64,000 nt of DNA from Pseudomonadota bacterium (GTDB taxonomy: Bacteria > Chloroflexota > UBA6077 > JAJPGT01): contig JAJPGT010000055.1 in NCBI GenBank assembly GCA_021325655.1, positions 1-64,000 of the forward strand, in the 5' to 3' direction. Below, piece by piece: positions 28,193 through 41,027 of this stretch (positions are counted from its first letter, which is position 1; every line of letters begins with the position of its first letter). The position numbers and the translations under genes are program-made. The notes beneath the pieces were generated by a model. It searched no databases. It had not been told where the DNA came from and saw only the letters and a program-made list of their open reading frames with translations.

Positions 28193-28334
28193 CTGGCCTA
28201 CCTATGTCGTCGTGGTACACTTCGGTCCAGAGCGATGAAGCTCACTCGGGCAGGCACCGCCCGCCGAAGTGCCGCGCAAGCTGGCTGATAGCTTCTACCG
28301 CTGACCCCGGTCGCCGGCGGAGAAGCTTTTTGTT
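28193..28334 (+). promoter_or_regulatory. Fluoride riboswitch 1 with promoter and intrinsic terminator
   Basis: A -10 box TACACT (28216-28221) precedes the aptamer, about 28228-28298. It has the crcB-motif layout: GAGCGATGAAGCTCACTC (P1 and loop), an inserted CGGGC/GCCCG hairpin, and GGCTGATAGCTTCTACC. Loop bases GAAGCT pair perfectly with the 3' AGCTTC (pseudoknot). The same AGCTTCT (28290-28296) can instead pair with AGAAGCT (28321-28327), immediately followed by a T run: a terminator. Ligand binding would therefore prevent termination and switch on the gene at 28370. Confidence 0.85.
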
Positions 28335-28369
28335 TCCCCGCCGGTGCCGGAGCGCGGAGGGACGATCCG

Positions 28370-29098
28370 GTGCGCGAGAACCAGTTCACTCGCCACCTGC
28401 CTTTCCACGCCCTGCTCGAAGCGCTGGAGCAGCCGGGCTGTCCGCTGTGCTGGCTCGCGGCTAGGGCCGTTGAGCGGGCGCTGGAAGGGCTCTCGTACGA
28501 GAACATCAACGACCCTGAGGTCCAGCGGGAGTTCCGAAGCGCCCTGGGCCTCTGCGCCCGGCATGGCTGGCAGTGGGTGGACCGGCTGCACAGCGGGCAG
28601 GGCGCGGCCATCCTGTATGGCGCCACCGCCACGACGGCCCTGACGCGTCTGCGGGCCGGGCGCAACGGGAGCGAGCCGCCGGGCGGGCTGCTCGCGCTCG
28701 TGCTCGGCGCCCGGCCCGAGACGCCTCCCGAGGTTGCCGCCCTCACCCCGGAAGGTCCCTGCCCGATGTGCCGAGTGCGCGACGAGACAGCCCGCCGTGC
28801 AGCCGAGGTGCTGCGCGGCGGGCTCAAGGACGCCGAATTCAAGGCCGCTTACGACCGGTCAGACGGCGTCTGCATCCCCCATCTTCGTTGGATGCTCGCC
28901 GATGCCCGCTCGGCCGACCAGCACGCGAGACAGGCGTTGGTCGAGCGGGCCATGGCGCGGCTGGAGCAGCTACGGGGCGAGCTGGCAGAGTACGTGCGCA
29001 AGCACGACTACCGTTTCCAGCATGAGCCGTACGGGAGCGAGCGGGAAGCACCCCTGCGGGCGCTCGCGTTCTTCGCCGGGGAGCGCGGGGTGTGGTGA
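28370..29098 (+). CDS. Fluoride-riboswitch-controlled CxxC/CxxH protein (DUF6062-like), two modules
   Basis: 242 residues; GTG start with GGAGGG 9 bases upstream. Two modules, each a CPxC pair followed some 35-40 residues later by CxxH: C24/C27 with C62/H65, and C131/C134 with C168/H171. Each could bind one metal ion such as zinc. The first module (CPLCWLAARAVERALEGLSY, ENINDPE, LGLCARHG) matches my memory of DUF6062-type proteins of unknown function. There is no membrane segment. It is translationally coupled (GTGA) to the next gene, with four more such modules. Control by riboswitch 1 ties both to fluoride response. Confidence 0.7.
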   Translation: MRENQFTRHLPFHALLEALEQPGCPLCWLAARAVERALEGLSYENINDPEVQREFRSALGLCARHGWQWVDRLHSGQGAAILYGATATTALTRLRAGRNGSEPPGGLLALVLGARPETPPEVAALTPEGPCPMCRVRDETARRAAEVLRGGLKDAEFKAAYDRSDGVCIPHLRWMLADARSADQHARQALVERAMARLEQLRGELAEYVRKHDYRFQHEPYGSEREAPLRALAFFAGERGVW

Positions 29099-30378
29099 CG
29101 CTCGGGCGGCACCGGGTCGAGGCGCTGGCAGGCACGCTCCTGGGCCGTGCTCTGGAGCAGCCCGGCTGCCCGATCTGCTGGCAGCAAGCGGAAGTCGCCG
29201 ACTGGCGTCTCTGGTACCTGCTGCGCGAGGGGCCGGACACGCTGGGCACCAGCGAGGCGGGGCTGAGCGCGCTGGGTCTCTGTCGCCAGCACCTCTGGGC
29301 GATCCACGACGAGGAGTACCGCGACCTCGGCAGCAGGGTGCAGACGGCCATGCTCTGCGAGCTGGCGCTTTCGGCCCTGGATCGCCGTTGGAGTGCGGCT
29401 GGCGGGGATACCCCCGCCCGGCTCGGCTGTCCACCTGCCCCCTGCCCGCTCTGCCAGGCAACGGCGCAGGATGAGCGGCGCGCCTGCGCGTCCCTGTTCT
29501 ACTCTCTCCGCTTCCCCGATGTCCGCGCGCACTACGCCGCCGGTTCTGGCCTGTGCCTCCGCCACCTCGCAGTAGCGCTGCCGGGCGCGGAGGCGGGAGT
29601 CGCCCGCCTGCTCCTGGAGAGCGCTGCGCGTCGCCTCCGCGAGGTCAGCGATGACCCGATGCAGCTCTGCGCGGTGTTGCACGGCCGTGATCCCGGTCAA
29701 CCGACGGAGCGGGCGGCGACCCGTCCCCGGTTGACGCCGCCGCTGGCCCCGGGAATTGGCTGCCCTGCCTGCGCCGCGCGCGCTCGCGCCGAGTCCACGA
29801 GCGCCCGGCGGCTGCTCGAGCGTGTAGCCAGCGGCGCGAAACGCGAACCGACCATGAACGCCTGGCTGTGCGGGCAGCACGCCTGGGCGCTGCTGGCCCG
29901 GGCGCCGAGCCGCGCGGCAACGGTGTTCGCTCTGGAGGCGCGTGCTGTTATGGCAGAGCTGGGGCGGCTGCTGGCTGAGATGCCTCGGCCGGAACGACAG
30001 GCACAGTCGCTGCTGGGGCGGCTGTTTCGCGCGAGGCGCCCGCATCGACCGGCCCTGCCGCGGCCGGACTGCAACATCTGCGCAGCCGGGAGTGCGGGGC
30101 TTGCTCAGGGAGGAGCCGACAGCGGGCGATACTGCCTGCCCCATGCGCGCCCGATCGTGCTGAGCGGAGACGAGACCGCCGTGGCCACAGCGTGGCCAAC
30201 CCTGCACGCACGCCTCATGGCGCTGTCCGCCGGGATCGACGCGTATATCCGCAAGCAGCAGTGGGAGCGCCGTGGCGATGCGTGGGGCGAGGCAGGGCTC
30301 GCCGTCCCCTGTGCGGTTGCCTTCCTCGTCGGCGAGCATCCGGAGCCGCTCTGTCTGGACGCCCCCGGGGGTCCCTGA
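29095..30378 (+). CDS. Fluoride-riboswitch-controlled CxxC/CxxH repeat protein, four modules
   Basis: 427 residues starting at the GTG that overlaps the previous stop. Four CxxC...CxxH modules: C25/C28 with C63/H66, C117/C120 with C154/H157, C223/C226 with C259/H262, and C326/C329 with C347/H350. The last is shorter. Opening GTLLGRALEQPGCPICW and closing GLCRQH mirror the upstream protein, so the two genes probably arose by duplication. The role is unknown; multiple thiol/His clusters suggest metal binding or a structural scaffold. Confidence 0.65.
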   Translation: MTLGRHRVEALAGTLLGRALEQPGCPICWQQAEVADWRLWYLLREGPDTLGTSEAGLSALGLCRQHLWAIHDEEYRDLGSRVQTAMLCELALSALDRRWSAAGGDTPARLGCPPAPCPLCQATAQDERRACASLFYSLRFPDVRAHYAAGSGLCLRHLAVALPGAEAGVARLLLESAARRLREVSDDPMQLCAVLHGRDPGQPTERAATRPRLTPPLAPGIGCPACAARARAESTSARRLLERVASGAKREPTMNAWLCGQHAWALLARAPSRAATVFALEARAVMAELGRLLAEMPRPERQAQSLLGRLFRARRPHRPALPRPDCNICAAGSAGLAQGGADSGRYCLPHARPIVLSGDETAVATAWPTLHARLMALSAGIDAYIRKQQWERRGDAWGEAGLAVPCAVAFLVGEHPEPLCLDAPGGP

Positions 30379-30572
30379 TGCTGAGGACCGAGCGTCTGGA
30401 GCCATTGCTCGGCGCCACAGTTGCCACGATGTGGCACCCAGCAGACGGCCTGCGCGCTCGCATTCTTCGCCGGCCGCCAGATATCTTCGTTCTGCCGCTG
30501 TCATTCGCCTCGCGCTCTGCTTGGAGCGGCGGTCAAGCGAGGGCCGAGTGGCAGGCCACGGGAGGAGGCGCG

Positions 30573-31046
30573 ATGGTTCGACTTGACATCCCGGGATGGG
30601 GCCCAGTCACCCTGCAGCACGCGGTCCTCGACGTCAACGGGACGCTGGCGCTCGACGGCCGGCTCATCGATGGTGTGGCCGAGCGGATACGGGCGCTGCG
30701 CGAACGGCTCCAGGTCCACCTCCTCACCGCGGACACGCACGGCCGCCAGGGGGAGATCGACGCGCTCCTGGGGCTGGCGGCCCGGCGGATGGAGCGGGGG
30801 CAGCCCGAGGACGAGCAGAAGGAGGCCTACGTCCGGGGGCTGGGCGCTGACTCCGTGGTGGCCATCGGAAATGGTGTCAACGACCGGCTCATGCTCCGCG
30901 CCGCAGCGATCGGGATTGTGATCCTCGGGCCGGAGGGCGCGGCCCGGGCGGCGCTGGACGGCGCGGATGTGGTGGTCACCACCCCGCTCGCGGCGCTTGA
31001 CCTGCTGCTCAACGAACGGCGGCTCCTGGCCACGCTCCGGCGCTAG
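30573..31046 (+). CDS. Small HAD protein of the soluble P-type-ATPase group
   Basis: 157 residues; the ATG has GGGAGGAGG upstream. HAVLDVNGTLALDG is motif I, with Asn in place of the usual second Asp (DxNGT), which I recall as typical of the soluble P-type ATPase-like group. LLTADTHG is motif II, and AIGNGVNDRLML is motif IV. It resembles an isolated phosphorylation domain. Some act as phosphatases. It follows the CxxC/CxxH genes after 194 bases on the same strand and may share riboswitch 1 control. Confidence 0.75.
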   Translation: MVRLDIPGWGPVTLQHAVLDVNGTLALDGRLIDGVAERIRALRERLQVHLLTADTHGRQGEIDALLGLAARRMERGQPEDEQKEAYVRGLGADSVVAIGNGVNDRLMLRAAAIGIVILGPEGAARAALDGADVVVTTPLAALDLLLNERRLLATLRR

Positions 31047-31323
31047 CGTCTCCGATCACCTCGAACCAGCACCGTGAAGACGCATTTGTGCGCCACGCGA
31101 TCGGCAGGTCCAGCGTGTCCGGCCAAGCCGCGAGCACGTATCTGGCCTGGCTGGCACGGGTCGATTGGCCGTTCCCGCGGCTCGGGCGGGACGAGCATCT
31201 CCTCGACTCGCCCGGTGATCCAGCTCCAGAGGCGTGATGCGTCCTTGCGGCCTTGGGGCACGGCCGCCCACGCCAGTGCCTAGCTCACTCGGTCGTTCCT
31301 CCAGCGGCGTCCGCGCCAAAGGC

Positions 31324-31854
31324 CTAGCCCGCCTCCAGCAGCGCCCGGACGACATCCGCGCGCCCGATCACGCCGAGCAGGCGCCCGTCCTCCAGGACGA
31401 GGATCGGGTGGCGGCCCTGGTTCGCCAGCGTCGCCGCGCCGTCGGCGACCGGGGTGTCCGGCGCGACGGAGACGAGACCGCACATCAGGCAGGGTCCACG
31501 GGCGCGCAGCCGCGCCGCCAGCCGCGCTGGCCAGAACAGCCCGCCGATGTCGAGCGCGGCCCGGGCGCGCTCCATCAGGTCCGCGTAGAGAATGGTCGGC
31601 GCGTGCAGCCAGCCGTGGCGGAACGCGGCGTCCACCGCCAGGAAGCCGTAGCTGTGGCGCTGGCACATCCCCCAGGCGCGCCGCAGCGCCCGGCGCGTCT
31701 CTGGGATCATGATGCTGCCCTGGATGAACGACCAGAGGAAGTGCACCTCGCCGTCCGAGAGGCGAATCGGCAGGGCGGGGGACAGCGGCCGCGGGGAAGG
31801 GGGTGAGCAGGGTGAGACAGTGGAGTTCGGCTGGATCGCGGAGCGGTTAAACAC
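31324..31854 (-). CDS. CxxH/CxxC module fused to a half CBS domain, under fluoride riboswitch 2
   Basis: 176 residues from GTG 31854; GGAGG lies 6 bases upstream inside the riboswitch expression platform. Residues 35-125 read [20 protein letters not shown], then WGMCQRH (C64, H67), a [17 protein letters not shown] helix, and GPCLMCG (C122, C125), related to the CxxC/CxxH proteins at 28-30 kb. Directly after CLMCG comes [17 protein letters not shown] and [20 protein letters not shown], a single CBS unit. The order of cysteine motifs is reversed, so it looks like a chimera of two fluoride-linked families. Confidence 0.65.
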
Positions 31855-31860
31855 AACGGG

Positions 31861-31986
31861 CCTCCACTGCGTCGTATGCAGTAGAAGCCATCAGCGGCCC
31901 CGCCGGGCCGCGGGTCGCGGGCGTGCGCCCACCGGCGAGCTTCATCGCCTCATCGGTAGTCTAGCGTGGACATCGCCGCGCGGCAA
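31861..31986 (-). promoter_or_regulatory. Fluoride riboswitch 2 with promoter, translational type
   Basis: Reading on the - strand: TTGCCG (31986-31981), 17 bases, TAGACT (31963-31958), then the aptamer, 31950-31880. P1 and loop are GGCGATGAAGCTCGCC, an inserted GGGCG/CGCCC hairpin follows, then GCGGCC paired with GGCCGC, and CTGATGGCTTCTACTG. Loop AAGC pairs with GCTT. CTACTGC then can pair with GCAGTGG, which abuts GGAGG, the ribosome site of the GTG at 31854. The switch therefore probably works on translation. Confidence 0.88.
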
Positions 31987-32035
31987 CGCGTACACCCTCT
32001 GCCGAGGCGCAGGCGGCAGGGAGCGAGGGAGCACG

Positions 32036-32431
32036 GTGGCGCAAGCGATGGAGCAGTGGAAGCAGCGGGGGCGGCAGCTCAAGCGCGAGGCGTACGTCGT
32101 GTACCTGGCTTTCCGAGATCCCCGGACCCCGTGGTACGCGAAGCTGCTCGCGGTGGCCATCCTCGCCTATGTGTTCAGCCCGATTGACCTGATCCCGGAC
32201 TTTGTCCCGCTGCTCGGCTCCCTGGACGATCTCGTCCTCGTCCCGCTCGGGGTCGCGCTGCTGCTCCGTCTGATCCCACCGGCGGTCCTCGCCGACTGCC
32301 GCCTGCGGGCAGAGGCGCTGGCCGAGCGGGGCAGGCCAATGCGCCTGGTGGGCGCGGCCGTGATCGTCGGCCTCTGGCTGGCCGCTGTGGTGGCCGTGGC
32401 GGTCATTGCCGCGCGCCTCAGCGGGGGGTAA
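32036..32431 (+). CDS. YkvA-like DUF1232 membrane protein
   Basis: 131 residues from the GTG at 32036 (an ATG 4 codons later is possible). The diagnostic DUF1232 core is [20 protein letters not shown], flanked by a helix beginning [15 protein letters not shown] second hydrophobic segment ([20 protein letters not shown]) ends the protein. Function unknown in the family. It sits between fluoride riboswitches 2 and 3 but has no aptamer of its own. Confidence 0.8.
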
Positions 32432-32465
32432 ATCGACCTTCCCCCTGGCTGGCAGTATCCCCGGC

Positions 32466-32578
32466 TATACTGAACATCTGGCGATGGGGTTCGCCTGGGC
32501 CGACGGCCCGTACTGCCGTGCGTGCGGCTGATGACTCCTGGCAGTTGCCACCCTGGCGACGTCGGGGGTTTTTTGTTT
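32466..32578 (+). promoter_or_regulatory. Fluoride riboswitch 3 with -10 box and terminator
   Basis: TATACT (32466-32471) is followed by the aptamer, 32480-32541: GGCGATGGGGTTCGCC, an inserted GGGCCGACGGCCC hairpin, a GCCG/CGGC stem, then GGCTGATGACTCCTGG. Loop GGGGT pairs with ACTCC. The same GACTCC can pair with GGGGGTT at 32565-32571, which runs into TTTTTT, giving a terminator. Fluoride binding should allow read-through into the MFS gene at 32615. Confidence 0.92.
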
Positions 32579-32614
32579 CCTACGTATTAGGGCCACAGAT
32601 GAGGGAGGGGCTCA

Positions 32615-33820
32615 ATGGGACGATCACCGGGTCTGGTCACCGATCGCCGTGTGGCGACACGGTCCGCGGCGCTCAAGTTCGTCCTCCTCATCGGCGTTGT
32701 CAGCTTCTTCGCCGACATGGCCTATGAGGGAGCTAGGAGCATCACCGGGCCCTACCTGGCGGTGCTGGGGGCAAGCGCGACGGCTGTCGGCGTCGTTGCC
32801 GGGTTTGGGGAGCTGGTCGGGTACGGGCTGCGACTGGTCTCCGGGCGCCTGAGTGACCGAACCGGCAAGTACTGGCCGATCACACTGTTCGGCTACGTCG
32901 TGCAGATGTCCTCCGTCCCACTCCTGGCGCTCGCCGGACACTGGGAGGTGGCGGCGCTGCTCATCATCGCCGAGCGTACCGGCAAGGCGATCCGCAACCC
33001 GCCGCGAGATGTGATGCTCTCACATGCCACGAAGGAGATGGGGCGCGGCTGGGGCTTCGGCCTGCACGAGGCGCTCGACCAGTTCGGGGCGCTGGTCGGC
33101 CCGCTGGCAGTGGCGGCCGTCCTCTCGGTTCGCGGGCAGTATCAGGCGGCGTTCGCGCTGCTGGCTATCCCCGCCCTTCTCACGCTCGCCCTGCTCGTCG
33201 TGGCGTGGCTCCTGTACCCCAGCCCACAGGACCTGGAGTCGAACCGACGAGGCCTGGAGACGGCCGGACTGCCCGGCGCCTTCTGGGTGTACCTGGCAGG
33301 CGCGGCGCTGGTCGCCGCCGGGTTCGCCGACTTCTCGCTGGTTGCCTACCACTTCGAGCGGGCATCCACGGTGCCGGCTTCCTGGATCCCGCTCTTCTAC
33401 GCGGTCGCCATGGCCGTGAGCGGGGGCGGATCGCTCGTGTTCGGGCGCCTGTTCGATCGCTTCGGGATCAGAGTCCTGGTCCCGCTCACCGTGGTATCTG
33501 CCCTGTTCGCCCCGCTGGTGTTTCTTGGTGGAGCCTCCGTGGCACTGGCCGGCGTCGCGCTCTGGGGTCTGGGGATGGGAGTGCACGAATCCATCATGGC
33601 GGCGGCGGTCGCGATGCTCGCGCCGGCGCCGCGGCGCGGATCGGCGTACGGGCTGTTCAACACCGGCTACGGCGTCGCCTGGTTCCTGGGAAGCGCCGTG
33701 ATCGGGCTCCTGTACGACATCTCGCTCCCGGCGCTGATCCTGTTCGCTGTCCTCGCCGAGCTCGCCGCCATCCCGCTGTTCCTGGTCGTCGCTCGGCAGA
33801 CTTCCGCGGTCGAGGAGTAA
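32615..33820 (+). CDS. MFS transporter under fluoride riboswitch control
   Basis: 401 residues, about 12 membrane helices; the ATG has GGGAGGGG upstream. The loop between helices 2 and 3 is SGRLSDRTGKYWPI, a degenerate MFS signature. SERTGKAIRNPPRDVM-like AERTGKAIRNPPRDVMLSHA and GRGWGFGLHEALDQFGALVG are strongly conserved in one MFS subgroup. It may export fluoride or a metabolite that accumulates under fluoride stress; substrate not known. Its direct position behind riboswitch 3 shows fluoride-dependent expression. Confidence 0.85.
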   Translation: MGRSPGLVTDRRVATRSAALKFVLLIGVVSFFADMAYEGARSITGPYLAVLGASATAVGVVAGFGELVGYGLRLVSGRLSDRTGKYWPITLFGYVVQMSSVPLLALAGHWEVAALLIIAERTGKAIRNPPRDVMLSHATKEMGRGWGFGLHEALDQFGALVGPLAVAAVLSVRGQYQAAFALLAIPALLTLALLVVAWLLYPSPQDLESNRRGLETAGLPGAFWVYLAGAALVAAGFADFSLVAYHFERASTVPASWIPLFYAVAMAVSGGGSLVFGRLFDRFGIRVLVPLTVVSALFAPLVFLGGASVALAGVALWGLGMGVHESIMAAAVAMLAPAPRRGSAYGLFNTGYGVAWFLGSAVIGLLYDISLPALILFAVLAELAAIPLFLVVARQTSAVEE

Positions 33821-33838
33821 GGCGCGGCAGCGCCGCTC

Positions 33839-33972
33839 TTGTCCGGGGTGGCGCCTTCTGGTATCGTTCGGAGCAGGCGATGGACCCCGCCGGGACCTGA
33901 CGGTCCGAACCGCCCGTGAGGGCTGATGGCTCCTGGGATGCGATCTTCGTGATCGCGGCCAGGAGCTATTTT
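33839..33972 (+). promoter_or_regulatory. Fluoride riboswitch 4 with promoter and terminator-like hairpin
   Basis: TTGTCC (33839-33844), 17 bases, TATCGT (33862-33867), then the aptamer, about 33877-33935: GGCGATGGACCCCGCC, an inserted GGACC/GGTCC hairpin, GAACCGCCC with GGGC, and TGATGGCTCCTGGG. GCTCCTGG (33928-33935) can also pair with CCAGGAGC (33959-33966) around a GCGATC-TTCGT-GATCGC inner stem, followed by TATTTTG. This is a likely terminator in front of the antiporter-crcB operon. Confidence 0.88.
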
Positions 33973-34002
33973 GCGCCCTGGCCCGGTGAGGGAGGGTGTC
34001 GC

Positions 34003-35220
34003 GTGCTGGAGCAGCTCATCGCGCAGAACGTCTGGTTCGTCGCCGCCGCCTGGATGGGGCTGGCGCTCCTCGCGAGCCTCGTCTCCATCCGCCTCGGTGT
34101 GTCGGTGGCCTTGATCAAGATCGGCATGGGGGTGATCGGCGGGAACTTGCTCGGCTTTCAGACGACGCCGTGGATCGACTTCCTGGCGACGTTCGGCTCA
34201 GGCCTGCTGACGTTTCTGGCCGGGGCCGAAATCGAGCCAGAGGCGTTGCGGCGCCACCTCAAGCCGACGCTGGTCATCGGAACCATCGCCTTCTTGCTGC
34301 CCTTCTTAGGCGCCTGGCAGTTCACCCAGCACATCGCCGGCTGGGAGCTGCACGCCGCCTGGATCGCCGGCATCGCCCTGTCGACCACCTCGGTGGCGGT
34401 CGTGTACGCAGTGATGGTAGAGACGGGGCTGAACACCACCGAGATCGGGAAGCTGATCCTGGCGGCGTGCTTCGTCAACGACTTCGGGACGGTGCTGGCG
34501 CTGGGTGTCCTGTTCGCCAACTTCAACGGCTACCTGGCCCTGTTCGTCGCTGTCCTGGCGGTGAGCCTGTACTTCATGCCCCGCTGGACGCGCTTCGTCA
34601 TCAAGAATGTGGGCAACCGTGTGAGCGAACCGGAGATCAAGTTTATCTTCTTCATGCTCTTCCTGCTCGGCGGCTTCGCCACGACCGCCAAGAGCGAGGC
34701 GGTCCTGCCAGCGTACCTGGTGGGGCTCGTCATCGCCGGCGTGTTCGCCCGTGACAAACTCCTGGTCAACCGAATGCGGAGCATCGCCTTCGCGCTGCTG
34801 ACCCCGTTTTACTTCCTCAAGGCCGGCCTCTACGTCAGCCTGCCGGCGGTGGTCAGTGGGTTCGTACTCATCGTGGCGCTGCTCCTGGTGAAGATGCTCG
34901 CCAAGGCGATCGGGGTCTGGCCGACCGCCCGGGTGTTCCGCTTCCCGCTGCGCGAGGCGAACTACACCACGCTGCTGATGAGCACCGGGCTGACGTTCGG
35001 GACGATCTCGGCCCTGTTCGGGCTCACGAACAAGATCATCGACCAGACGCAGTACACCATCCTGGTGACCGTGGTGATCCTGAGCGCGGTCGTCCCAACG
35101 CTGATCGCCCAGTCGTTCTTCCGCCCCGAGGTGGCCGAGCGCGGAGTGGAGGAGACCGAGGCGGCGCTGGAGCCGGTCCCCACCGGGCACGGGACGAGCC
35201 GGGCGGTGGCGACAGAGTGA
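34003..35220 (+). CDS. Cation/proton antiporter (CPA2-like) under fluoride riboswitch control
   Basis: 405 residues; GTG 34003 is preceded by GGGAGGG 6 bases away. It has about 12 hydrophobic helices, with GSGLLTFLAGAEIEPEALRR, ALSTTSVAVVYAVMVE and an ND motif (ACFVNDFGTVLAL) typical of Na+/H+ and K+/H+ exchangers. It is first in the operon of riboswitch 4 and overlaps crcB by 4 bases. Antiporters are known fluoride-riboswitch partners; here it probably restores ion or pH balance when HF enters the cell. Confidence 0.87.
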   Translation: MLEQLIAQNVWFVAAAWMGLALLASLVSIRLGVSVALIKIGMGVIGGNLLGFQTTPWIDFLATFGSGLLTFLAGAEIEPEALRRHLKPTLVIGTIAFLLPFLGAWQFTQHIAGWELHAAWIAGIALSTTSVAVVYAVMVETGLNTTEIGKLILAACFVNDFGTVLALGVLFANFNGYLALFVAVLAVSLYFMPRWTRFVIKNVGNRVSEPEIKFIFFMLFLLGGFATTAKSEAVLPAYLVGLVIAGVFARDKLLVNRMRSIAFALLTPFYFLKAGLYVSLPAVVSGFVLIVALLLVKMLAKAIGVWPTARVFRFPLREANYTTLLMSTGLTFGTISALFGLTNKIIDQTQYTILVTVVILSAVVPTLIAQSFFRPEVAERGVEETEAALEPVPTGHGTSRAVATE

Positions 35221-35612
35221 GGTGGGTGCAGAATGCGCTGCCATACCTGGCGGTCGCGGCCGGGGCGATGGTGGGGGCGAACCTGCGCTATGCTCTCAGC
35301 ACCTGGATGGTGGCTCGATTCGGGGCAGGCTTCCCCTACGGGACCTTCTTCATCAACGTGTCCGGGGCGTTCGTCATCGGGGTGTTCCTCGCGCTGCTCA
35401 CCGAGCGCGTCACGCTGCACCCGCTCTGGCGGCCATTCTTCGCCACCGGTCTCCTCGGCGGCTACACCACCTTCAGCAGCTACACCTGGGAGGCGCTGGC
35501 GCTCGCCCGCGGCGGCGACTGGCTCAGCGCCGTGGCGTACGTTGGCGGGAGCAACGCGCTGGGCCTTGCAGGAGTCTGGCTCGGGGCGATGCTGGTTTCA
35601 CTGCTGCGCTAA
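35217..35612 (+). CDS. crcB: Fluoride exporter CrcB (Fluc)
   Basis: 131 residues, standard for Fluc channels, which work as dual-topology dimers and let F- leave the cell. The signature segments are present: GANLRYALSTWM, YGTFFINVSGAFVIG (with the channel Asn) and TGLLGGYTTFSSYTWEAL (the TTFSS polar track). The GTG start overlaps the antiporter stop. It lies downstream of riboswitch 4, which fixes the function of the whole region. Confidence 0.96.
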   Translation: MRWVQNALPYLAVAAGAMVGANLRYALSTWMVARFGAGFPYGTFFINVSGAFVIGVFLALLTERVTLHPLWRPFFATGLLGGYTTFSSYTWEALALARGGDWLSAVAYVGGSNALGLAGVWLGAMLVSLLR

Positions 35613-35627
35613 CCCGAGGAGACGCTG

Positions 35628-36902
35628 ATGGAGATCGCGGGCATCGGCAAGCGGGTGCGCATCTACCTGGGGGAGCATGACAAGTCCGCAGGCGCGCACG
35701 GGCCGCTCTGGGAAACGATCCTGGACCTGTTGCGGACCGAGGGGGCGGCCGGGGCGACGATGTTCCGCGGCCTGGCCGGCTTCGGGGCGCACAGCCAGCT
35801 CCACATCGCCCGGCTGGCCGACATCCTCTCAGACCTCCCCATAGTCGTGGAATGGATCGACGGGCCGGATCGGGTCGAGCGCCTGCTCCCCCGCGTCTGC
35901 GCACTGGTGACAACCGGCATGATCACTGTGGAAGACGTGGAGATCGTCAAGTACACCCATCGCCAGCCCCGCCCGTTGCCGCCCGATACTGTTGGAGACG
36001 TCATGTCGCGCGACGTGGTGGCGGTGCGCCCCGAGACGCCGGTGAGCGAGGCGGTCCGGATGCTGCTGAACCGCGACTACCGGGCCCTGCCGGTTGTGGA
36101 CGATCAGGGCCGGCTGGTGGGGATTGTGACCAACCGCGACCTGGTAGAGCGCGGCGGTCTCAGCGCGCGGGTTGAATTGCTCGCAGCGCTCGGCAGCCCG
36201 GCGCTCGAGCGTGAGCTGGCGAGCTCGGGTGCCCGGGAGAAGAACGTCGCCGAGGTGATGACCCGCGAGGTGGTCAGCGCCCGCCCGAGCGACCGGCTCG
36301 ACCAGGCAGCGCGCCTGATGGTCGAGCGGCGGGTGAAGCGCCTGCCGGTGACCGACGACCAGGGGCGCCTGGTCGGGATCCTGAGCCGGGTCGATGTGCT
36401 GCGAACGATGGGAGAGGATTACCTGGCCCCGCCCGGCGGCCCACCCGCGGCGCCCGACGTCGCCCGGACGGTTGGGGAGCTGATGCGCCGGGACGTGCCG
36501 GCGGTCCTGGCCGACGCTCCGCTCGGAGAGGTGCTCGACGCAGTGACGTCCACCCGGCTCAACCGGGCGATCGTAGTCGACACTGCCCGCCGCGTGCTGG
36601 GCGTGGTTAGCGACGCCGACCTGCTCGCTCGGCTCGATCCAGGGGCAGAAACCGGGCTGCTGGCCGCGCTGATGCGGCGTGGCAAGCTCTCGCGCGAAAC
36701 CCCGGGGCGTGCCCGGGATGTGGTGCGGGCGCCGGCCCTGACGGTTCCTGCCGATACGCCGATCGCTGAGGCGGTGCGCATGATGCTGGAGGAGCGACGC
36801 AAGGTCCTGCCGATCACCGACGCGGAGGGCCGCCTGCTCGGGGCGGTGGATCGGGCTAACCTGCTGGCGCACCTGCGCTGGGCGTCGGCTGAGGGCGCAT
36901 AG
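35628..36902 (+). CDS. DUF190 protein with four CBS domains
   Basis: 424 residues; GAGGAG 6 bases before the ATG. Residues 1-110 are DUF190 (KRVRIYLGEHDKSAGAHGPL, GATMFRGLAGFG), a PII-like fold. Four CBS repeats follow, beginning near 123 (DVMSRDVVAVRPETPV), 205 (EVMTREVVSARPSDRL), 283 (ELMRRDVPAVLADAPL) and 360 (DVVRAPALTVPADTPI), making two Bateman modules that usually bind adenine nucleotides. DUF190 genes are common next to crcB. The protein could sense energy state and gate a transporter. It lies 15 bases after crcB. Confidence 0.9.
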   Translation: MEIAGIGKRVRIYLGEHDKSAGAHGPLWETILDLLRTEGAAGATMFRGLAGFGAHSQLHIARLADILSDLPIVVEWIDGPDRVERLLPRVCALVTTGMITVEDVEIVKYTHRQPRPLPPDTVGDVMSRDVVAVRPETPVSEAVRMLLNRDYRALPVVDDQGRLVGIVTNRDLVERGGLSARVELLAALGSPALERELASSGAREKNVAEVMTREVVSARPSDRLDQAARLMVERRVKRLPVTDDQGRLVGILSRVDVLRTMGEDYLAPPGGPPAAPDVARTVGELMRRDVPAVLADAPLGEVLDAVTSTRLNRAIVVDTARRVLGVVSDADLLARLDPGAETGLLAALMRRGKLSRETPGRARDVVRAPALTVPADTPIAEAVRMMLEERRKVLPITDAEGRLLGAVDRANLLAHLRWASAEGA

Positions 36903-36913
36903 GAGGTGCAGCC

Positions 36914-37356
36914 GTGTACCACACATTCTCGTCGCGCTGGACGGCTCCGCGGGCTCCAAGGCGGCGTTGTGGCGTGCGGTCCAGATCGCTCGCGAATCAG
37001 GCGCCAGGCTTCACGCCCTGGCCGTGGAGGATCACCTCCCGCGCTATGCCGCGACCGTGGGGGAGATGGAGGAGGCGCGGGCGGAGAAGGACGCCTTCTT
37101 CAAGGCGGTGATGGATGAGGCACGCAACTACGCCGCGGAGCACGAGGTGCCGCTAACCACCGAGGTCGTCGTCGGCCACGCGGCGCAGCAGATCGTCCAG
37201 CGGGCGCGGCAGCTCGGCGCGGACCTCGTGGTAATCGGGCAGTCGGGTCACTCCAGCGTCTGGGGCAACCTCCTGGGCACGACCGCCCATAAAGTCTCGC
37301 ACCACGCCCCCTGTGACGTCCTGATCGTCCGCCTGCCGGACGGGCGATCGGGCTAG
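36914..37356 (+). pseudogene. Universal stress protein UspA, frameshifted near the start
   Basis: A perfect AGGAGGTG stands 5 bases before the GTG at 36914. That frame soon becomes non-homologous. One base later the reading ILVALDGSAGSKAALWRAVQ appears, the normal first strand of a Usp, and continues intact through VVIGQSGHSSVWGNLLGTTA and CDVLIVRLP to the stop at 37356. The beginning therefore lacks one base (GTGTACCACACATT where an extra C is expected). Either a recent mutation or an assembly error. It is the last gene of the crcB operon. Confidence 0.75.
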
Positions 37357-37426
37357 CGCGGCGCGCCGGCGAGCTCGCGTTCGGTACGAGCAGGGTTGGA
37401 TTCCCCTGCGTATCGGCGCCAGGGGG

Positions 37427-37642
37427 TCAGGAGCTCTGGAGCGCCAGGCGAAACGCTTCGCCAAGCACGACTGACCCGACGACGAAGAACACGAAGGCGA
37501 CGACCGCCATCCAGAGCGACCGCAGGATCACCACGCGCTGGGGCAGCAGGTGCCGGCTCCACTCCTGGTAGGTGATGATGAAGGCGGCCACAGCCGCCAG
37601 GGGCGAGAAGACCAGCCCGATGAGCAGGAACAGACTCACCAT
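37427..37642 (-). CDS. Small two-helix membrane protein
   Basis: 71 residues with two hydrophobic segments: LFLLIGLVFSPLAAVAAFIIT and WMAVVAFVFFVVGSVVLGEA, joined by a short charged loop (YQEWSRHLLPQR). No family recognised. It is the last gene of the - strand operon that begins behind fluoride riboswitch 5, 18 bases after the pyrophosphatase-like gene. Confidence 0.6.
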   Translation of the reverse strand: MVSLFLLIGLVFSPLAAVAAFIITYQEWSRHLLPQRVVILRSLWMAVVAFVFFVVGSVVLGEAFRLALQSS

Positions 37643-37660
37643 TCGGGTCTGCTCCTGCCG

Positions 37661-39160
37661 TCAACGCTCGACGAGCGCAACCGGTCGCCGGCGCACGGCG
37701 ACCGGTTGCGCTCCAGCGGACTGCGCCGGTAGGAGCGGATAGGCAGCCAGTCGCCGGCGCACGGCGAGGAATAGGTCCAGGAAGGCCGGGGCGAGCGTGT
37801 ACGGGAATGGAAGCCGCAGTACCGGCTCCGGCGCGGCCGCCCATAGGCGCAGCTCGCTGGCGAACAGGCCTGCCCGGATCTCGATCGTGGCCAGCGCCCC
37901 GATCGGCCACTGACGTGCGGCGAGCCCATCGCGCTGCTCCTCGAGCAGGAGCAGCCGCTCCGGGGTGAGCGCCAGCGCCGCGGTCGCCGACCTCTCGGAT
38001 GGCATGGCCGGGGCGAGGGCCCAGCTAATGAGCGCTTCGCGCTTTGCGAGGGACTGCCGAACCCGCTCCCTCCAGGTTACCACCTCCAGGTCGCCAAAGA
38101 AGGTATCCCAGCCGGTTCTGTTCTCATCCAGCGGCTCGACGCAGCCGGTGCGCGCCGGCAGATGCTCGGCAGCTCGTGGGATGAAGCCGCGGGACAGGGC
38201 GACCAGTTCCTCCAGCGCGGGGCCGGCCGGCACGGGGACGCGCCACCTGGCCACGCCCTCCGCCGCCTGCACCTGCACCAGCAGCACCGTGCTGCCCTGC
38301 CCAGCCTCTTGCTGGGCGCCGGCAATCCGCTCTACGGCGGTGGCGCGGGCGACGAACCCCTTGTTCCAGACGACGGCATCCGGCGGGGCGGCATCTTCGA
38401 GCAGGATGAGCTGCTGGTCGGTCAGGAACAGCACCGCCTCGGGCTGTGGAGGAGTGCGCCGCAGCAGGCCGCGCGCCGGGCGGGCGGGCCGGTGGACCGA
38501 GGCCAGGAGGCGTTCGCTGGGCAGCACCACTTCCCGCGCGTAGAGCTGGAAGCGCAAGGGGAGGCGCGCGAGACCGTACTCGGCATCGGTGTGGTGCTCT
38601 GTCTCACTCAACGCCCAGCGACGCTGCGCCCCGGGCGTCACGATCCAGGCGGCCTCGTCGACGGCCTGGGCGGCGCGCTGCTCCGCGGCGGCTCGCCGGC
38701 CGCGTGCAATCGCCTCACGGACCAGCTCACCCGCCGCCGCGGCGCCCAGCCAGCCGGAAGGCGTACCACCCAGCACGCGCTCTACGCGACGAGCGAACTC
38801 GGCGTCGAGGTCCGCAGCGCTGAACGGGACGTCTTCCATCCCGACGAGCGGAACCCGGACCACCAGCCGGTCCCCGCTCCCCGAGCGCAGCAGCCCAACC
38901 ACCTGAGCCCGGACGATGGCGCCGGGCAGCGCCGAGACCTCGCCGACCACGATCACCCGCACCGGGGCGCCGTGCTCGTCGGCGCTGCCGGCCACCCGCC
39001 CGAGGTCACCCGGGAGGTCCTCCTCAGCCGGCGGGTGGACGCGGCTGAGACGCAGGGGGCCCCCTGGCAGGACCAGGTATTCCCCGGCTGGGCGGGCGTT
39101 GGCCTCCACAATGACATCCACTTCCATTGGCCGGGCCGCGGGCCTGCGCTCGCCGCTCAT
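37661..39160 (-). CDS. Protein with a degenerate inorganic-pyrophosphatase-like domain and two PH-like domains
   Basis: 499 residues; GAGGAAGAG lies before the ATG. Residues 12-110 follow the family I pyrophosphatase pattern strand for strand: EVDVIVEANARPAGEYLVL, RLSRVHPPAEEDLPGDLG, HGAPVRVIVVGEVSALPG and AQVVGLLRSGSGDRLVVRVP. The catalytic residues are largely replaced: NYG became DLG, DGDP became EHGAP, DVLV became RVIV, EDAK became GDRL. Two PH-like beta modules follow (about 215-335, with LFLTDQQLILLED, and 385-485, with LALTPERLLLLEE). It overlaps the upstream gene by 4 bases and lies in the operon of fluoride riboswitch 5. PPase is a known fluoride target. Confidence 0.55.
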   Translation of the reverse strand: MSGERRPAARPMEVDVIVEANARPAGEYLVLPGGPLRLSRVHPPAEEDLPGDLGRVAGSADEHGAPVRVIVVGEVSALPGAIVRAQVVGLLRSGSGDRLVVRVPLVGMEDVPFSAADLDAEFARRVERVLGGTPSGWLGAAAAGELVREAIARGRRAAAEQRAAQAVDEAAWIVTPGAQRRWALSETEHHTDAEYGLARLPLRFQLYAREVVLPSERLLASVHRPARPARGLLRRTPPQPEAVLFLTDQQLILLEDAAPPDAVVWNKGFVARATAVERIAGAQQEAGQGSTVLLVQVQAAEGVARWRVPVPAGPALEELVALSRGFIPRAAEHLPARTGCVEPLDENRTGWDTFFGDLEVVTWRERVRQSLAKREALISWALAPAMPSERSATAALALTPERLLLLEEQRDGLAARQWPIGALATIEIRAGLFASELRLWAAAPEPVLRLPFPYTLAPAFLDLFLAVRRRLAAYPLLPAQSAGAQPVAVRRRPVALVER

Positions 39161-39528
39161 GGCTCTTCCTCTTGGAGACGCAGCCGCATGCCCCGGTTGT
39201 CGATCCGCAACGCCTGCTGTTTGATCCGCAGGATGCGGTTGGATTGCGCGAGCGTGAACGCCGCGTAGCGCAGCGCCGCGACGCGCCCCTCGGACACCGG
39301 GTGCTGCCCAGCCGCCTGCTGGGCCGGTGCCCGTTCCTGGCGCAGGGCAGCGAGGCCGAACGCGACGAAGAGGAGCGGCCAGTTCTCGCCATCCTCCGTG
39401 TCCAGCCAGCCATGGTTGCGGGCGAGGGCCAGCGCCTCCTCGACCTCCGCCGCAGGAACAGTCAGCCGCGCGGTTCGCTCCGCTTCACCGGCGACGAGCC
39501 CGGCAAACGAGTGGCGCCCCCGGCTCAT
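39157..39528 (-). CDS. Hypothetical protein in the fluoride riboswitch 5 operon
   Basis: 123 residues, mainly helical: ERTARLTVPAAEVEEALALA, HGWLDTEDGENWPLLFVAFGL, SEGRVAALRYAAFTLAQSNR. No signal peptide or membrane segment and no known family. It overlaps its neighbours by 4 bases on both sides, so it is probably made in fixed ratio with them, perhaps as a complex with the PPase-like protein (inference). Confidence 0.6.
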   Translation of the reverse strand: MSRGRHSFAGLVAGEAERTARLTVPAAEVEEALALARNHGWLDTEDGENWPLLFVAFGLAALRQERAPAQQAAGQHPVSEGRVAALRYAAFTLAQSNRILRIKQQALRIDNRGMRLRLQEEEP

Positions 39529-39887
39529 CGCCGGCCCCCGGGCGGCCCGAACAGCCGCTTGATCGCCGCCTCCTGGTCGTACAGCTCGGCGCCGGGCAAG
39601 GGGCGAAGGCGAGTGCGCAGCCGGGCGTTCTCGGACTCCAGCCGCTCGACAGAGGCCTCGAGCTCGGTGTTCTCCCGCAGTCGGTGCAGCACCCGCCAGG
39701 TGTTGAGCGCCTCAGCCGCCTCGAGCTCCAACGCGTCGGTCGCACCGCTCTCGTGGCGACCGGAGAGCAGCTCGAGTCCACGACGGAAGGCTGCGGCGAG
39801 GGCCGCTTCCAGGGGAAGACCGGTGGCCGCCTGAAGGTCGGCGGCCATGCGCTCAGTCAGACAAACCGCGAGGCTTCGCTCGTCCAT
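39525..39887 (-). CDS. Coiled-coil hypothetical protein, first gene of the fluoride riboswitch 5 operon
   Basis: 120 residues from the ATG at 39887. The N-terminal half is helical (MAADLQAATGLPLEAALAAA). Residues about 55-95 form a coiled coil (LRENTELEASVERLESENAR). The C-terminus ends LYDQEAAIKRLFGPPGG. No family recognised. It is the first gene behind riboswitch 5 and overlaps the next gene by 4 bases. A scaffold or oligomerisation role is possible. Confidence 0.6.
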   Translation of the reverse strand: MDERSLAVCLTERMAADLQAATGLPLEAALAAAFRRGLELLSGRHESGATDALELEAAEALNTWRVLHRLRENTELEASVERLESENARLRTRLRPLPGAELYDQEAAIKRLFGPPGGRR

Positions 39888-39931
39888 GCCAGCCCACCTG
39901 CGAGACGTTCGTCGGCGGGGCAGACTGGACA

Positions 39932-40037
39932 GCCTCTCCCGCGCCGTGCAGGGCGGTAGAGGCCATCAGCCGGATAGGAAGCCGGCGGTTTGCCTGAATT
40001 GGCCGGGCGAGCCTCATCGCCCGTCGCTCGTAGTATA
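39932..40037 (-). promoter_or_regulatory. Fluoride riboswitch 5 with -10 box, alternative hairpin
   Basis: On the - strand TATACT (40037-40032) precedes the aptamer, 40022-39953: GGGCGATGAGGCTCGCCC, AAACCGCCGG with CCGGC, and TGATGGCCTCTACCGCCC. P1 and 3' segment closely match the Thermotoga petrophila aptamer as I remember it. Loop GAGGC pairs with GCCTC. GCCTCTACCGC can instead pair with GCGGGAGAGGC (39942-39932; 10 of 11 pairs), an anti-aptamer hairpin without a T run. It controls the four-gene operon starting at 39887. Confidence 0.92.
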
Positions 40038-40087
40038 TCCCAGATTTCGTGGCCACCGTGGTTCTGGCGACATGGCAGCGGCCGTAG

Positions 40088-40204
40088 TACACTCAGGATC
40101 GGGGCGTGGCGCTGCCCCGGGACGTCGCCCGACGTCCGAACCGCGGCCTTGGCCGCTGATAGCTCCTACCGTACACGTGTGTGCGTCTGGTAGGAGCTGC
40201 TATG
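40088..40204 (+). promoter_or_regulatory. Fluoride riboswitch 6, diverged aptamer
   Basis: TACACT (40088-40093) precedes a crcB-like element at 40100-40170: GGGGCGTGGCGCTGCCCC, an inserted GGACGTC/GACGTCC hairpin, GAACCGCGGCC with GCCGC, and TGATAGCTCCTACC. The GATG normally found in P1 is lost, so binding may be impaired. AGCTCCTACC (40161-40170) pairs perfectly over 10 bp with GGTAGGAGCT (40189-40198), hiding an AGGAG 6 bases before ATG 40202. The frame after that ATG (74 codons) does not look like a real protein. Divergent from riboswitch 5. Confidence 0.7.
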
Positions 40205-40436
40205 CCGAACTCGCCTCCAACAAGCCGGCTGGGTCCCGGCTTCCGAATCCCCCGACGACAGCAACACCCTTGGAGTCCTGGCCGCGCGCGGCGGGAGTAT
40301 CTGGGCCAGGGTCCACTGCTCAGACCTTTCGCGCAGCGTCGGCACGACGCAGGTGCCAGGCGAGCTGAGCGAGGAGCCAGGGAGCTTCGCTGGCGCACTG
40401 GCGTGGCCATGCCCCTCCTTGAGTGAGAGCTCGACC

Positions 40437-41027
40437 ATGGTGGCCGAACGGAGCTTCGCGCCCTACGCACCCAGGAAAGCCGTCCTCCAGGTTCTCCATC
40501 GGTGTCGTGCCCGGGGATTGCCCTCCCCGCTCACGCCAGCGGCCCTGCAGCAGATCGGGGTCGCCTCGACGATGACCTGGCGCACCGTGCAGGCGTTGCG
40601 CTTCTTGGGCCTGATTGACGGGGAGGGCAACCTCCTGGAGCCGTTGGAGCAGCTCCAGCAGACCGCTGCGGAGGAGTACCGCAGCCGGCTTCGCGAGATC
40701 ATCCGCGCTGCGTACCTGCCGGTGTTCACCGTCGTGGACCCGGCTCGGGATAGCCTGGCGCAAGTCTCGGCCGCCTTCCGCCACTACGAGCCGGGCGGCC
40801 AGCGGGCTAAGATGGTGATGCTGTTCTTAGGGCTCTGTAAGGAAGCCGGTATGGCGCAGCCTGCTCGGACACGCGCGGGCCGGCAGTCGCGCCAGGATCA
40901 GCAGCCCCTGGGGCCGGCGCTGGGCGTCGCCCGTAAGGAACCGACGGGCGGCAGGAGTCCCACCGGCGCGATGGCATGCCATCGCGCCGGAAATGCGTGC
41001 CGCCCAGCGCCATCGACTACCAGGTGA
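40437..41027 (+). CDS. DUF5343-like protein, N-terminal part (probably frameshifted)
   Basis: 196 residues as the frame stands. Residues 5-130 look like a winged-helix-type DUF5343 domain: PRKAVLQVLHRCRARGLPSP, WRTVQALRFLGLIDGEGNLL, EYRSRLREIIRAAYLPVFTV, and FLGLCKEAGM. The last 50 residues are basic and low in structure. The expected C-terminal segment is found in another frame beginning at about 40976, so the gene is probably broken by one indel near 40980-41010. It is the next gene after riboswitch 6. Confidence 0.6.
   Translation: MVAERSFAPYAPRKAVLQVLHRCRARGLPSPLTPAALQQIGVASTMTWRTVQALRFLGLIDGEGNLLEPLEQLQQTAAEEYRSRLREIIRAAYLPVFTVVDPARDSLAQVSAAFRHYEPGGQRAKMVMLFLGLCKEAGMAQPARTRAGRQSRQDQQPLGPALGVARKEPTGGRSPTGAMACHRAGNACRPAPSTTR

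What the first reader, a model, noticed from the sequence alone, without database searches (positions are those of the whole stretch)
28193..40204. Six fluoride riboswitches in 12 kb: a fluoride-response island
Six crcB-type aptamers (28.2, 31.9 minus, 32.5, 33.9, 40.0 minus, 40.1 kb) share a GCGATG-type P1 loop, a CTGATRRC 3' segment ending in CTCC or CTTC, and a loop-3' pseudoknot. They flank crcB, an antiporter, an MFS carrier and several unknown genes. Genomes usually carry one or a few fluoride riboswitches; six together imply a dedicated multi-operon fluoride system with unknown parts.
Basis: partly seen in the sequence, partly recalled or inferred. Interest (0 to 1): 0.95.

Follow-up and report, generated by a model that had tools for sequence, protein, structure and literature searches.

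The report
Six-switch fluoride island with unknown genes
Six RNA elements of the fluoride-riboswitch family, all that were found in this bacterium's genome, lie within 12 kb in front of the fluoride exporter gene crcB and several uncharacterised genes, and are predicted to switch them on together when fluoride rises, which would point to unrecognised parts of bacterial fluoride defence.

Summary
Rfam RF01734 passes four sites (34.7-40.9 bits) and leaves two below cut-off (30.1, 19.3). A model built only from 36 relatives' aptamers finds all six at E <= 4.7e-11; the next window hit is E 0.0046. The pseudoknot covaries. No other convincing site was found in the 5.2 Mb genome. In all six the 3' pseudoknot strand can pair instead into a downstream hairpin: terminator-like at four, over a Shine-Dalgarno-like sequence at one, unclear at one. 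Fluoride is therefore predicted to turn on six transcripts. Known parts: CrcB, CPA2 antiporter, HAD, Usp. New: two switches precede DUF6062 or DUF6062-like genes, and one heads an operon with a pyrophosphatase-fold protein keeping 2 of 14 catalytic residues. Both links recur: 17 of 54 DUF6062 stretches in 201 genomes of the phylum lie downstream of an aptamer (about 0.02 expected), and so do 4 of 5 pseudo-pyrophosphatase loci (the fifth is cut by a contig end). DUF6062 is named in no paper of the library searched. Similar islands occur in relatives. Fluoride binding and the new proteins' functions are untested.

The parts
28222..28304 (+). Fluoride aptamer A28 (weak by Rfam, strong by leave-out model)
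   Evidence: RF01734 19.3 bits; R2 51.1 bits, E 1.3e-15; pseudoknot 6/6 pairs, one C-A mismatch in P1
28290..28327 (+). A28 platform: 13-bp terminator-like hairpin sharing the pseudoknot strand, followed by T run
   Evidence: truncated fold -18.7 kcal/mol; in the 60-nt fold a distal hairpin wins instead
28370..29098 (+). DUF6062 protein, 242 aa
   Evidence: PF19538 E 9.2e-18, 65 bits over cut-off 27; AF2 pLDDT 91.6
29092..30378 (+). Second DUF6062-like protein, 428 aa, overlaps the first gene by 7 bases
   Evidence: PF19538 24 bits, below cut-off 27; profile comparison probability 99.0, E 3.6e-18
30573..31046 (+). HAD-type hydrolase resembling the P-domain of P-type ATPases; likely same operon (194-base gap)
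   Evidence: PF00702 E 4.8e-8; TIGR01525 E 7.7e-11 but far below its cut-off
31875..31958 (-). Fluoride aptamer B31m
   Evidence: RF01734 34.7 bits; R2 50.0 bits
31859..31889 (-). B31m platform: 12-bp hairpin with T-rich tail
31324..31854 (-). DUF6062-like half fused to a CBS domain (exact start uncertain)
   Evidence: PF00571 E 2.9e-7; residues 38-127 match the DUF6062 profile, probability 96.0, E 4.4e-9
32471..32547 (+). Fluoride aptamer C32
   Evidence: RF01734 38.8 bits; R2 55.5 bits
32533..32570 (+). C32 platform: terminator-like hairpin and T run
   Evidence: 60-nt fold -26.6 kcal/mol, z -3.6; inner part called by the terminator scan
32615..33820 (+). MFS transporter
   Evidence: PF07690 E 9.1e-34; 65-73% identical relatives behind aptamers in four other loci
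33867..33942 (+). Fluoride aptamer D33
   Evidence: RF01734 38.0 bits; R2 47.3 bits
33928..33967 (+). D33 platform: hairpin followed by ATTTTG
   Evidence: 60-nt fold -29.8 kcal/mol, z -2.4; not called by the terminator scan
34003..35220 (+). CPA2 cation/proton antiporter
   Evidence: PF00999 E 2.4e-37; TIGR00932 102 bits, below its cut-off
35217..35612 (+). crcB (Fluc fluoride channel)
   Evidence: PF02537 94.4 bits, cut-off 32.9
35628..36902 (+). DUF190 plus four CBS domains
   Evidence: PF02641 E 1.3e-28, PF00571 four stretches
36967..37356 (+). Universal stress protein, open frame lacks a usual start
   Evidence: PF00582 E 4e-22
39950..40030 (-). Fluoride aptamer E40m
   Evidence: RF01734 40.9 bits; R2 58.7 bits
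39931..39964 (-). E40m platform hairpin without T run, mode unclear
   Evidence: 60-nt fold -25.6 kcal/mol but z only -1.2
39525..39887 (-). 120-aa protein, first gene of the minus operon
   Evidence: only sub-cut-off matches in Pfam
39157..39528 (-). 123-aa protein
   Evidence: no Pfam family above cut-off; relative beside the same gene in L069, 28%, E 7e-7
37661..39160 (-). Pseudo-pyrophosphatase, 499 aa: family I PPase fold (about 12-154) without most catalytic residues, then PH-like domains (inferred)
37427..37642 (-). 71-aa small protein (membrane protein by eye), recurrent in relatives' fluoride loci
   Evidence: tblastn matches in 6 of the 27 loci searched: L052, L053, L054, L062, L063, L070
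40093..40175 (+). Fluoride aptamer F40 (below Rfam cut-off; CGTG in P1 loop)
   Evidence: RF01734 30.1 bits; R2 37.5 bits, E 4.7e-11
40161..40202 (+). F40 platform: hairpin that pairs the pseudoknot strand with GGTAGGAG, 5 bases before an ATG whose frame looks non-coding; no T run
40437..41027 (+). DUF5343 protein, nearest recognisable gene after F40
   Evidence: PF17278 E 3e-13
40031..40092 (.). 62-bp spacer between the divergent aptamers with outward -10-like boxes
   Evidence: -10-like boxes 14-16 bases before P1; 11 divergent, 0 convergent, 0 tandem pairs within 250 bases among 121 aptamers

Best explanation
This is a 12-kb island of six fluoride-riboswitch-family aptamers, predicted to turn on six transcripts when fluoride enters the cell. 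Shown at sequence level: six aptamers with a covarying pseudoknot, five of them ending 20-67 bases before a gene (261 for the sixth), each sharing its 3' pseudoknot strand with a downstream hairpin. Inferred: Mg-fluoride locks the pseudoknot, so the shared strand cannot build the hairpin. At A28, B31m, C32 and D33 this would prevent transcription termination; at F40 it would free a ribosome-binding-like sequence, although the frame behind it looks non-coding; at E40m the mode is unclear. The products would then act together: CrcB exports fluoride (established family function), the CPA2 antiporter and perhaps the MFS carrier restore ion and pH balance, HAD and Usp handle stress. Less certain: DUF6062 proteins, with two invariant C-x2-C/C-x2-H sites, likely bind metal and cope with fluoride-disturbed metal balance; the pseudo-pyrophosphatase likely regulates or protects pyrophosphate or membrane functions without hydrolysing pyrophosphate.
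For: Six sites by Rfam and by a leave-out model, the best six in the genome. Pair counting on 42 aptamers: 96.6% of 504 cells pair; 8 of 12 pairs change on both sides (1 of 500 shuffles as high); pseudoknot column pair 17-92 is A-U in 21 and G-C in 21, though the Rfam structure line leaves those columns unpaired. The pseudoknot strand pairs into a hairpin in 5 of 6 sites in the 60-nt fold and in A28 when the transcript is cut before a distal hairpin. First recognisable genes behind 47 aptamers in the 27 relatives' loci fetched (L049-L075): DUF6062 10, CrcB 6, CPA2 6, hydrogenase/NADH-dehydrogenase-like 5 (one Pfam-tested, four by eye), MFS 4, enolase 1, MutS 1; the classical members support fluoride as ligand. 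In 201 genomes 17 of 54 DUF6062 stretches lie within 3 kb downstream of an aptamer against about 0.024 expected. Pseudo-PPase: aptamer upstream on the same strand in the window, L098/G027, L069/G016 and L097.
Against: Two sites are below the Rfam cut-off. A28 has a P1 mismatch; F40 has an altered loop and one broken pseudoknot pair, D33 one broken pair. E40m's hairpin is barely more stable than shuffles (z -1.2) and has no T run. The terminator scan called only two of the six platforms and its total (5) is within shuffle range (3.3, sd 2.0); the sigma-70 consensus scan found none. F40's Shine-Dalgarno-like sequence leads into a frame with GC3 0.64; its nearest recognisable gene is 261 bases away, and DUF5343 was found behind none of the 47 other aptamers. 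37 of 54 DUF6062 stretches have no aptamer within 3 kb, and genome-level co-occurrence is not significant (19/26/42/114, p 0.065), so DUF6062 is not fluoride-only. No binding or expression data exist.
Confidence: 0.8

Rival explanations
1. An ordinary fluoride regulon: the switches work, but DUF6062, the pseudo-pyrophosphatase and DUF5343 are passengers or general stress genes with no specific fluoride role.
For: Most DUF6062 stretches (37 of 54) are not near an aptamer and co-occurrence by genome is not significant. Pseudo-PPase was found in only 4 of 29 class genomes. The genome carries a further DUF6062 gene on C66 with no aptamer called near it.
Against: 17 of 54 against about 0.024 expected, in 12 genomes of 10 genera. 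Pseudo-PPase follows an aptamer in 4 of 5 loci, alone, with DUF6062, or with MoxR-like and DUF190-CBS-like genes.
Confidence: 0.3
2. Only the four sites above the Rfam score are working switches; A28 and F40 are decayed copies.
For: 19.3 and 30.1 bits against a cut-off of 34; P1 mismatch in A28, altered loop and one broken pseudoknot pair in F40, non-coding-looking frame behind F40.
Against: The leave-out model scores them 51.1 and 37.5 bits. Both keep a strong mutually exclusive hairpin. A28 precedes DUF6062 as aptamers do in relatives.
Confidence: 0.2
3. Some of these aptamers sense another ligand (a variant class in the fluoride-riboswitch fold).
For: Loop variant in F40; no ligand data.
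Against: Downstream genes in window and relatives are those known for fluoride: CrcB, antiporter, HAD, enolase, MutS (PMC11139923 passages; PMC2864571 passages).
Confidence: 0.05

Closest known systems
Fluoride (crcB) riboswitch, RF01734
   Same: P1, P3, loop-3' pseudoknot, hairpin overlapping the 3' pseudoknot strand; upstream of a crcB operon, antiporter and other genes
   Different: Six in 12 kb of one genome; two score below the curated cut-off; a divergent pair 62 bases apart; one perhaps acts on translation (translational fluoride riboswitches are already described, PMC13273304 passages)
Enterobacter cloacae FRM fluoride operon on island GI3 (PMC5533749, passages)
   Same: Fluoride-riboswitch-controlled cluster with crcB, uspA and a pyrophosphatase-related gene
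   Different: There one switch drives a six-gene operon with fluoride-target enzymes (Mn-dependent pyrophosphatase, enolase); here six switches, no enolase among the genes scanned, and the pyrophosphatase-like protein is a family I fold without most of its catalytic residues
Family I inorganic pyrophosphatase (PF00719)
   Different: Keeps 2 of 14 catalytic positions (1-5 of 14 in eight relatives) while the genome's two ordinary pyrophosphatases keep 13 and 14; carries about 340 further residues
DUF6062 (PF19538)
   Same: Two C-x2-C/C-x2-H sites and a K-H-D-Y-R signature; one gene above cut-off
   Different: Uncharacterised; no paper of the library names it; a link to fluoride switches was not seen in the searches made

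Membership tests
Fluoride riboswitch RF01734 | Covariance score at or above the curated 34 bits | tested here: inconclusive
   Met by 4 of 6 sites; 30.1 and 19.3 bits for the other two
Fluoride riboswitch RF01734 | Match to a model of related aptamers built without the window sequences | tested here: met
   6 of 6 at E <= 4.7e-11; next E 0.0046
Fluoride riboswitch RF01734 | Loop-3' pseudoknot | tested here: met
   5 or 6 of 6 pairs in every window site; covariation over 42 sequences
Fluoride riboswitch RF01734 | Expression platform mutually exclusive with the pseudoknot | tested here: met
   5 of 6 in 60-nt folds, A28 only in truncated folds; E40m weak (z -1.2)
Fluoride riboswitch RF01734 | Binds fluoride and changes expression | not testable with these tools
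   needs in-line probing or reporters
CrcB/Fluc | PF02537 above cut-off | tested here: met
   94.4 bits, cut-off 32.9
Family I inorganic pyrophosphatase (as enzyme) | PPase fold | tested here: met
Family I inorganic pyrophosphatase (as enzyme) | Catalytic and metal-binding residues | tested here: not met
   2 of 14 kept (the list of 14 positions is recalled E. coli numbering)
DUF6062 (PF19538) | Pfam score at or above 27 bits | tested here: met
   28370-29098: 65 bits; the gene at 29092 reaches 24 bits only but matches the profile at probability 99.0
E. cloacae FRM-type fluoride operon | Active spare copies of fluoride-inhibited enzymes under the switch | tested here: not met
   No enolase or active pyrophosphatase among the island genes scanned

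The most novel reading that the evidence does not exclude
Chloroflexota carry an undescribed arm of fluoride defence: DUF6062 is a new two-site metal protein family that counters fluoride's attack on metal cofactors, and a dead pyrophosphatase fused to PH-like domains acts as a fluoride-proof regulatory or decoy partner for pyrophosphate or membrane machinery, both put under massed, often divergent, fluoride riboswitches in one island.
Probability: 0.2. Interest if true: 0.85.

Novelty: new variant of a known kind. Interest (0 to 1): 0.6.

Why it matters
Fluoride riboswitches have served as signposts to unknown fluoride-resistance proteins. This island and its relatives name two candidates that can be tested directly: DUF6062, the commonest first gene behind the relatives' aptamers examined here (10 of 47), and a pseudo-pyrophosphatase whose parent enzyme is a known fluoride target. 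Fluoride toxicity also limits work on making or breaking down fluorinated chemicals (PMC11139923, passages).

Tried and rejected
A seventh site (G000:C81:163491-163569, R1 26.4 bits) was checked: 23.6 bits with R2, E 1.9e-7 for 5.5 kb, but it lacks GATG and CTGAT; not counted. A frame of about 75 codons from the ATG after F40 (40202-40426) has GC3 0.64 against 0.82-0.95 for the other genes, and the slightly longer frame 40181-40426 has no Pfam match; not taken as a gene, so what F40 controls is open.

Other pyrophosphatase-fold proteins with gaps in the active site had no convincing aptamer nearby and are not part of the claim: G006:C166, G009:C156, G015, G014 (6 of 14 residues kept) and G018:C24 (10 of 14; its match covers only model positions 2-70). 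Near the genome's own two pyrophosphatases the best R2 hits were 17.3 bits (L116:10073 -, not upstream of the gene) and a partial 15.1-bit hit about 0.55 kb upstream in L117; both are taken as noise, not shown to be.

A first 42-sequence alignment (A2) was wrong because eight rows were on the wrong strand; it was replaced by A3. The 47 relatives' aptamers are the 46 hits at 30.9 bits or more outside the window plus L072, an Rfam hit; two R1 hits of 22 bits (L051:9520, L066:7537) were left out. Three of 34 DUF6062 homologues (P0033, P0038, P0039) were left out of A6. The -10-like pattern was read off the window's own six sites, so those are not an independent test; 14 of 48 aptamers (5 of the window's 6, so 9 of 42 others) have it at the strict position against 0.6% background.

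Papers: PMC11139923, PMC5533749, PMC2864571, PMC7266159 and PMC13273304 were seen as passages only; other papers as listings only. The founding 2012 fluoride riboswitch paper is not held. Searches behind 'not found in print': fluoride riboswitch or DUF6062, 40 of 115 listed; DUF6062 alone, 0 papers; regulon terms, 20 of 61 listed; fluoride riboswitch with Chloroflexi, 1 paper, on Megasphaera; crcB motif and tandem terms, 10 of 15 listed; pseudoenzyme terms, 8 of 93 listed, none of the 8 holding 'fluoride riboswitch'; gene cluster or island, 12 of 19 listed. Supplements and most subscription papers were not searched.


Full report
1. The observation. Rfam's fluoride model passes four of the six sites (40.9, 38.8, 38.0, 34.7 bits; cut-off 34) and leaves two below it (30.1 and 19.3 bits). 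Because the Rfam model is general, I built models from this lineage. R2 was made from 36 aptamers of other genomes (themselves found with Rfam) and none from the window. It finds all six window sites at 58.7, 55.5, 51.1, 50.0, 47.3 and 37.5 bits (E 3.8e-18 to 4.7e-11); the seventh of 24 listed hits has E 0.0046. In the whole genome the six are the best hits with Rfam and with R1 (R1 includes the six, so its scores for them are biased). Only 150 first-look candidates were scored in each of those two searches. All fluoride-family aptamers detected in this genome therefore lie in one 12-kb stretch; the chance of that for six random points is about 4e-13.

2. Structure. On 42 aptamers (six of the window, 36 of relatives) 96.6% of 504 cells of P1, P3 and the pseudoknot pair, against 34-53% when the partner is slid by 1-3 columns; 8 of 12 pairs show changes on both sides. 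The pseudoknot pair in columns 17-92 is A-U in 21 sequences and G-C in 21. Rfam's structure line leaves these columns unpaired, so this is added evidence, though the hits were collected by a model that also scores sequence there. In the window the pseudoknot has 6 of 6 pairs at four sites and 5 of 6 at D33 and F40; A28 has a C-A mismatch inside P1.

3. Expression platforms. The 3' pseudoknot strand pairs with downstream sequence in 5 of 6 sites in a 60-nt fold. For A28 a more distal hairpin wins in that window, but if the transcript ends in the T run the strand forms a 13-bp hairpin of -18.7 kcal/mol. A28, B31m, C32 and D33 have T-rich tails and look like terminators. F40 has none; its hairpin covers GGTAGGAG five bases before an ATG, but the frame from that ATG looks non-coding (GC3 0.64). 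E40m has neither and its fold is close to shuffles (z -1.2). Against this, a plain terminator scan called only B31m and C32 and its total was within shuffle range, and no consensus sigma-70 promoter was found. A -10-like TANNNT box lies 14-16 bases before P1 in all six, which would start transcription near the aptamer.

4. Genes. A28: DUF6062 (28370), DUF6062-like (29092), HAD (30573). B31m: a DUF6062-like half fused to CBS (31854-31324). C32: MFS (32615). D33: CPA2 antiporter (34003), crcB (35217), DUF190 plus four CBS domains (35628), Usp (36967). E40m: 120 aa, 123 aa, 499 aa, 71 aa (39887 down to 37427), with overlaps of 4 bases between the first three. F40: DUF5343 (40437) after a 261-base gap. 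Pfam; profile comparisons 97 and 98; distances.

6. DUF6062. In 31 aligned members (of 34 found) C24, C27, C62, H65, C131, C134, C168, H171, K211, D213 and R215 are among the invariant positions, giving two C-x2-C/C-x2-H sites. The model is confident (pLDDT 91.6) and all-helical, with no usable PDB match. Among 47 aptamers in 27 relatives' loci DUF6062 is the first recognisable gene behind 10; CrcB and CPA2 have 6 each, MFS 4. In 201 genomes of the phylum there are 121 aptamers in 61 genomes and 54 DUF6062 stretches in 45. Of the 54, 17 (12 genomes, 10 genera) lie within 3 kb downstream on the same strand; about 0.024 are expected by chance, taking 4 Mb per genome. Some of the 17 are two stretches of one gene or second genes. 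The other 37 do not lie near one, and genome-level co-occurrence is not significant (p 0.065), so DUF6062 is linked to fluoride switches but not confined to them.

7. How unusual. In those 201 genomes 34 of 61 aptamer-bearing ones have a single copy, 15 have two, and 7 have five or more. This genome (6) shares second rank with G009 behind G151 (7), and is the only one with six in 12.1 kb; G009 and G024 have five. G027, outside that sample, has 7 spread over four contigs. R2 was trained mostly on this class and only 22 candidates per genome were scored, so counts elsewhere are lower bounds. Close aptamer pairs in the sample are all divergent: 11 divergent, 0 convergent, 0 tandem within 250 bases, consistent with shared promoter regions between back-to-back switches, as at 39950/40093.

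8. Who it is. It is in 111 contigs with 7.81% contamination, but the island lies on one 76-kb contig.

9. Reading. The sequence evidence for six fluoride-family switches and the clustered operons is strong; that fluoride turns them on is inferred from the family and from the company they keep. What is new is the recurring link of DUF6062 and of a pyrophosphatase fold without its active site to fluoride switches. Their mechanisms are proposals only.

Noticed in passing
window 36900-37356: The universal stress protein frame has no usual start codon where its family begins; the gene looks frameshifted near its 5' end (real or assembly error).
   Followed up: partly
window 32036-32431: A DUF1232 gene sits inside the island between two switches without an aptamer of its own.
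   Followed up: no
window 40437-41027: DUF5343 gene after F40 weakly matches a PADLOC candidate defence model (PDC-M34A, E 7e-7).
   Followed up: no
L051 4537-5541 -, L060 7013-8122 +, L097 4718-5764 +: MoxR-type AAA ATPase genes follow fluoride aptamers in several relatives (Pfam AAA_3 in the first two; L097 by eye); another possible new regulon member.
   Followed up: partly
L051 9601-11715 -, L053 11195-13234 +, L054 8624-9367 +: Acetyl-CoA synthetase-like, dynamin-like and GAF-domain genes lie behind other relatives' fluoride aptamers.
   Followed up: no
window 37678-37708: A 12-bp perfect inverted repeat inside the 3' end of the pseudo-PPase gene.
   Followed up: no
window 41920-43080 -: A dnaN-like gene (sliding clamp, by eye) lies next to the island.
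   Followed up: no
G000:C66:84070-84717 -: Another DUF6062 gene elsewhere in the genome with no aptamer called near it.
   Followed up: no
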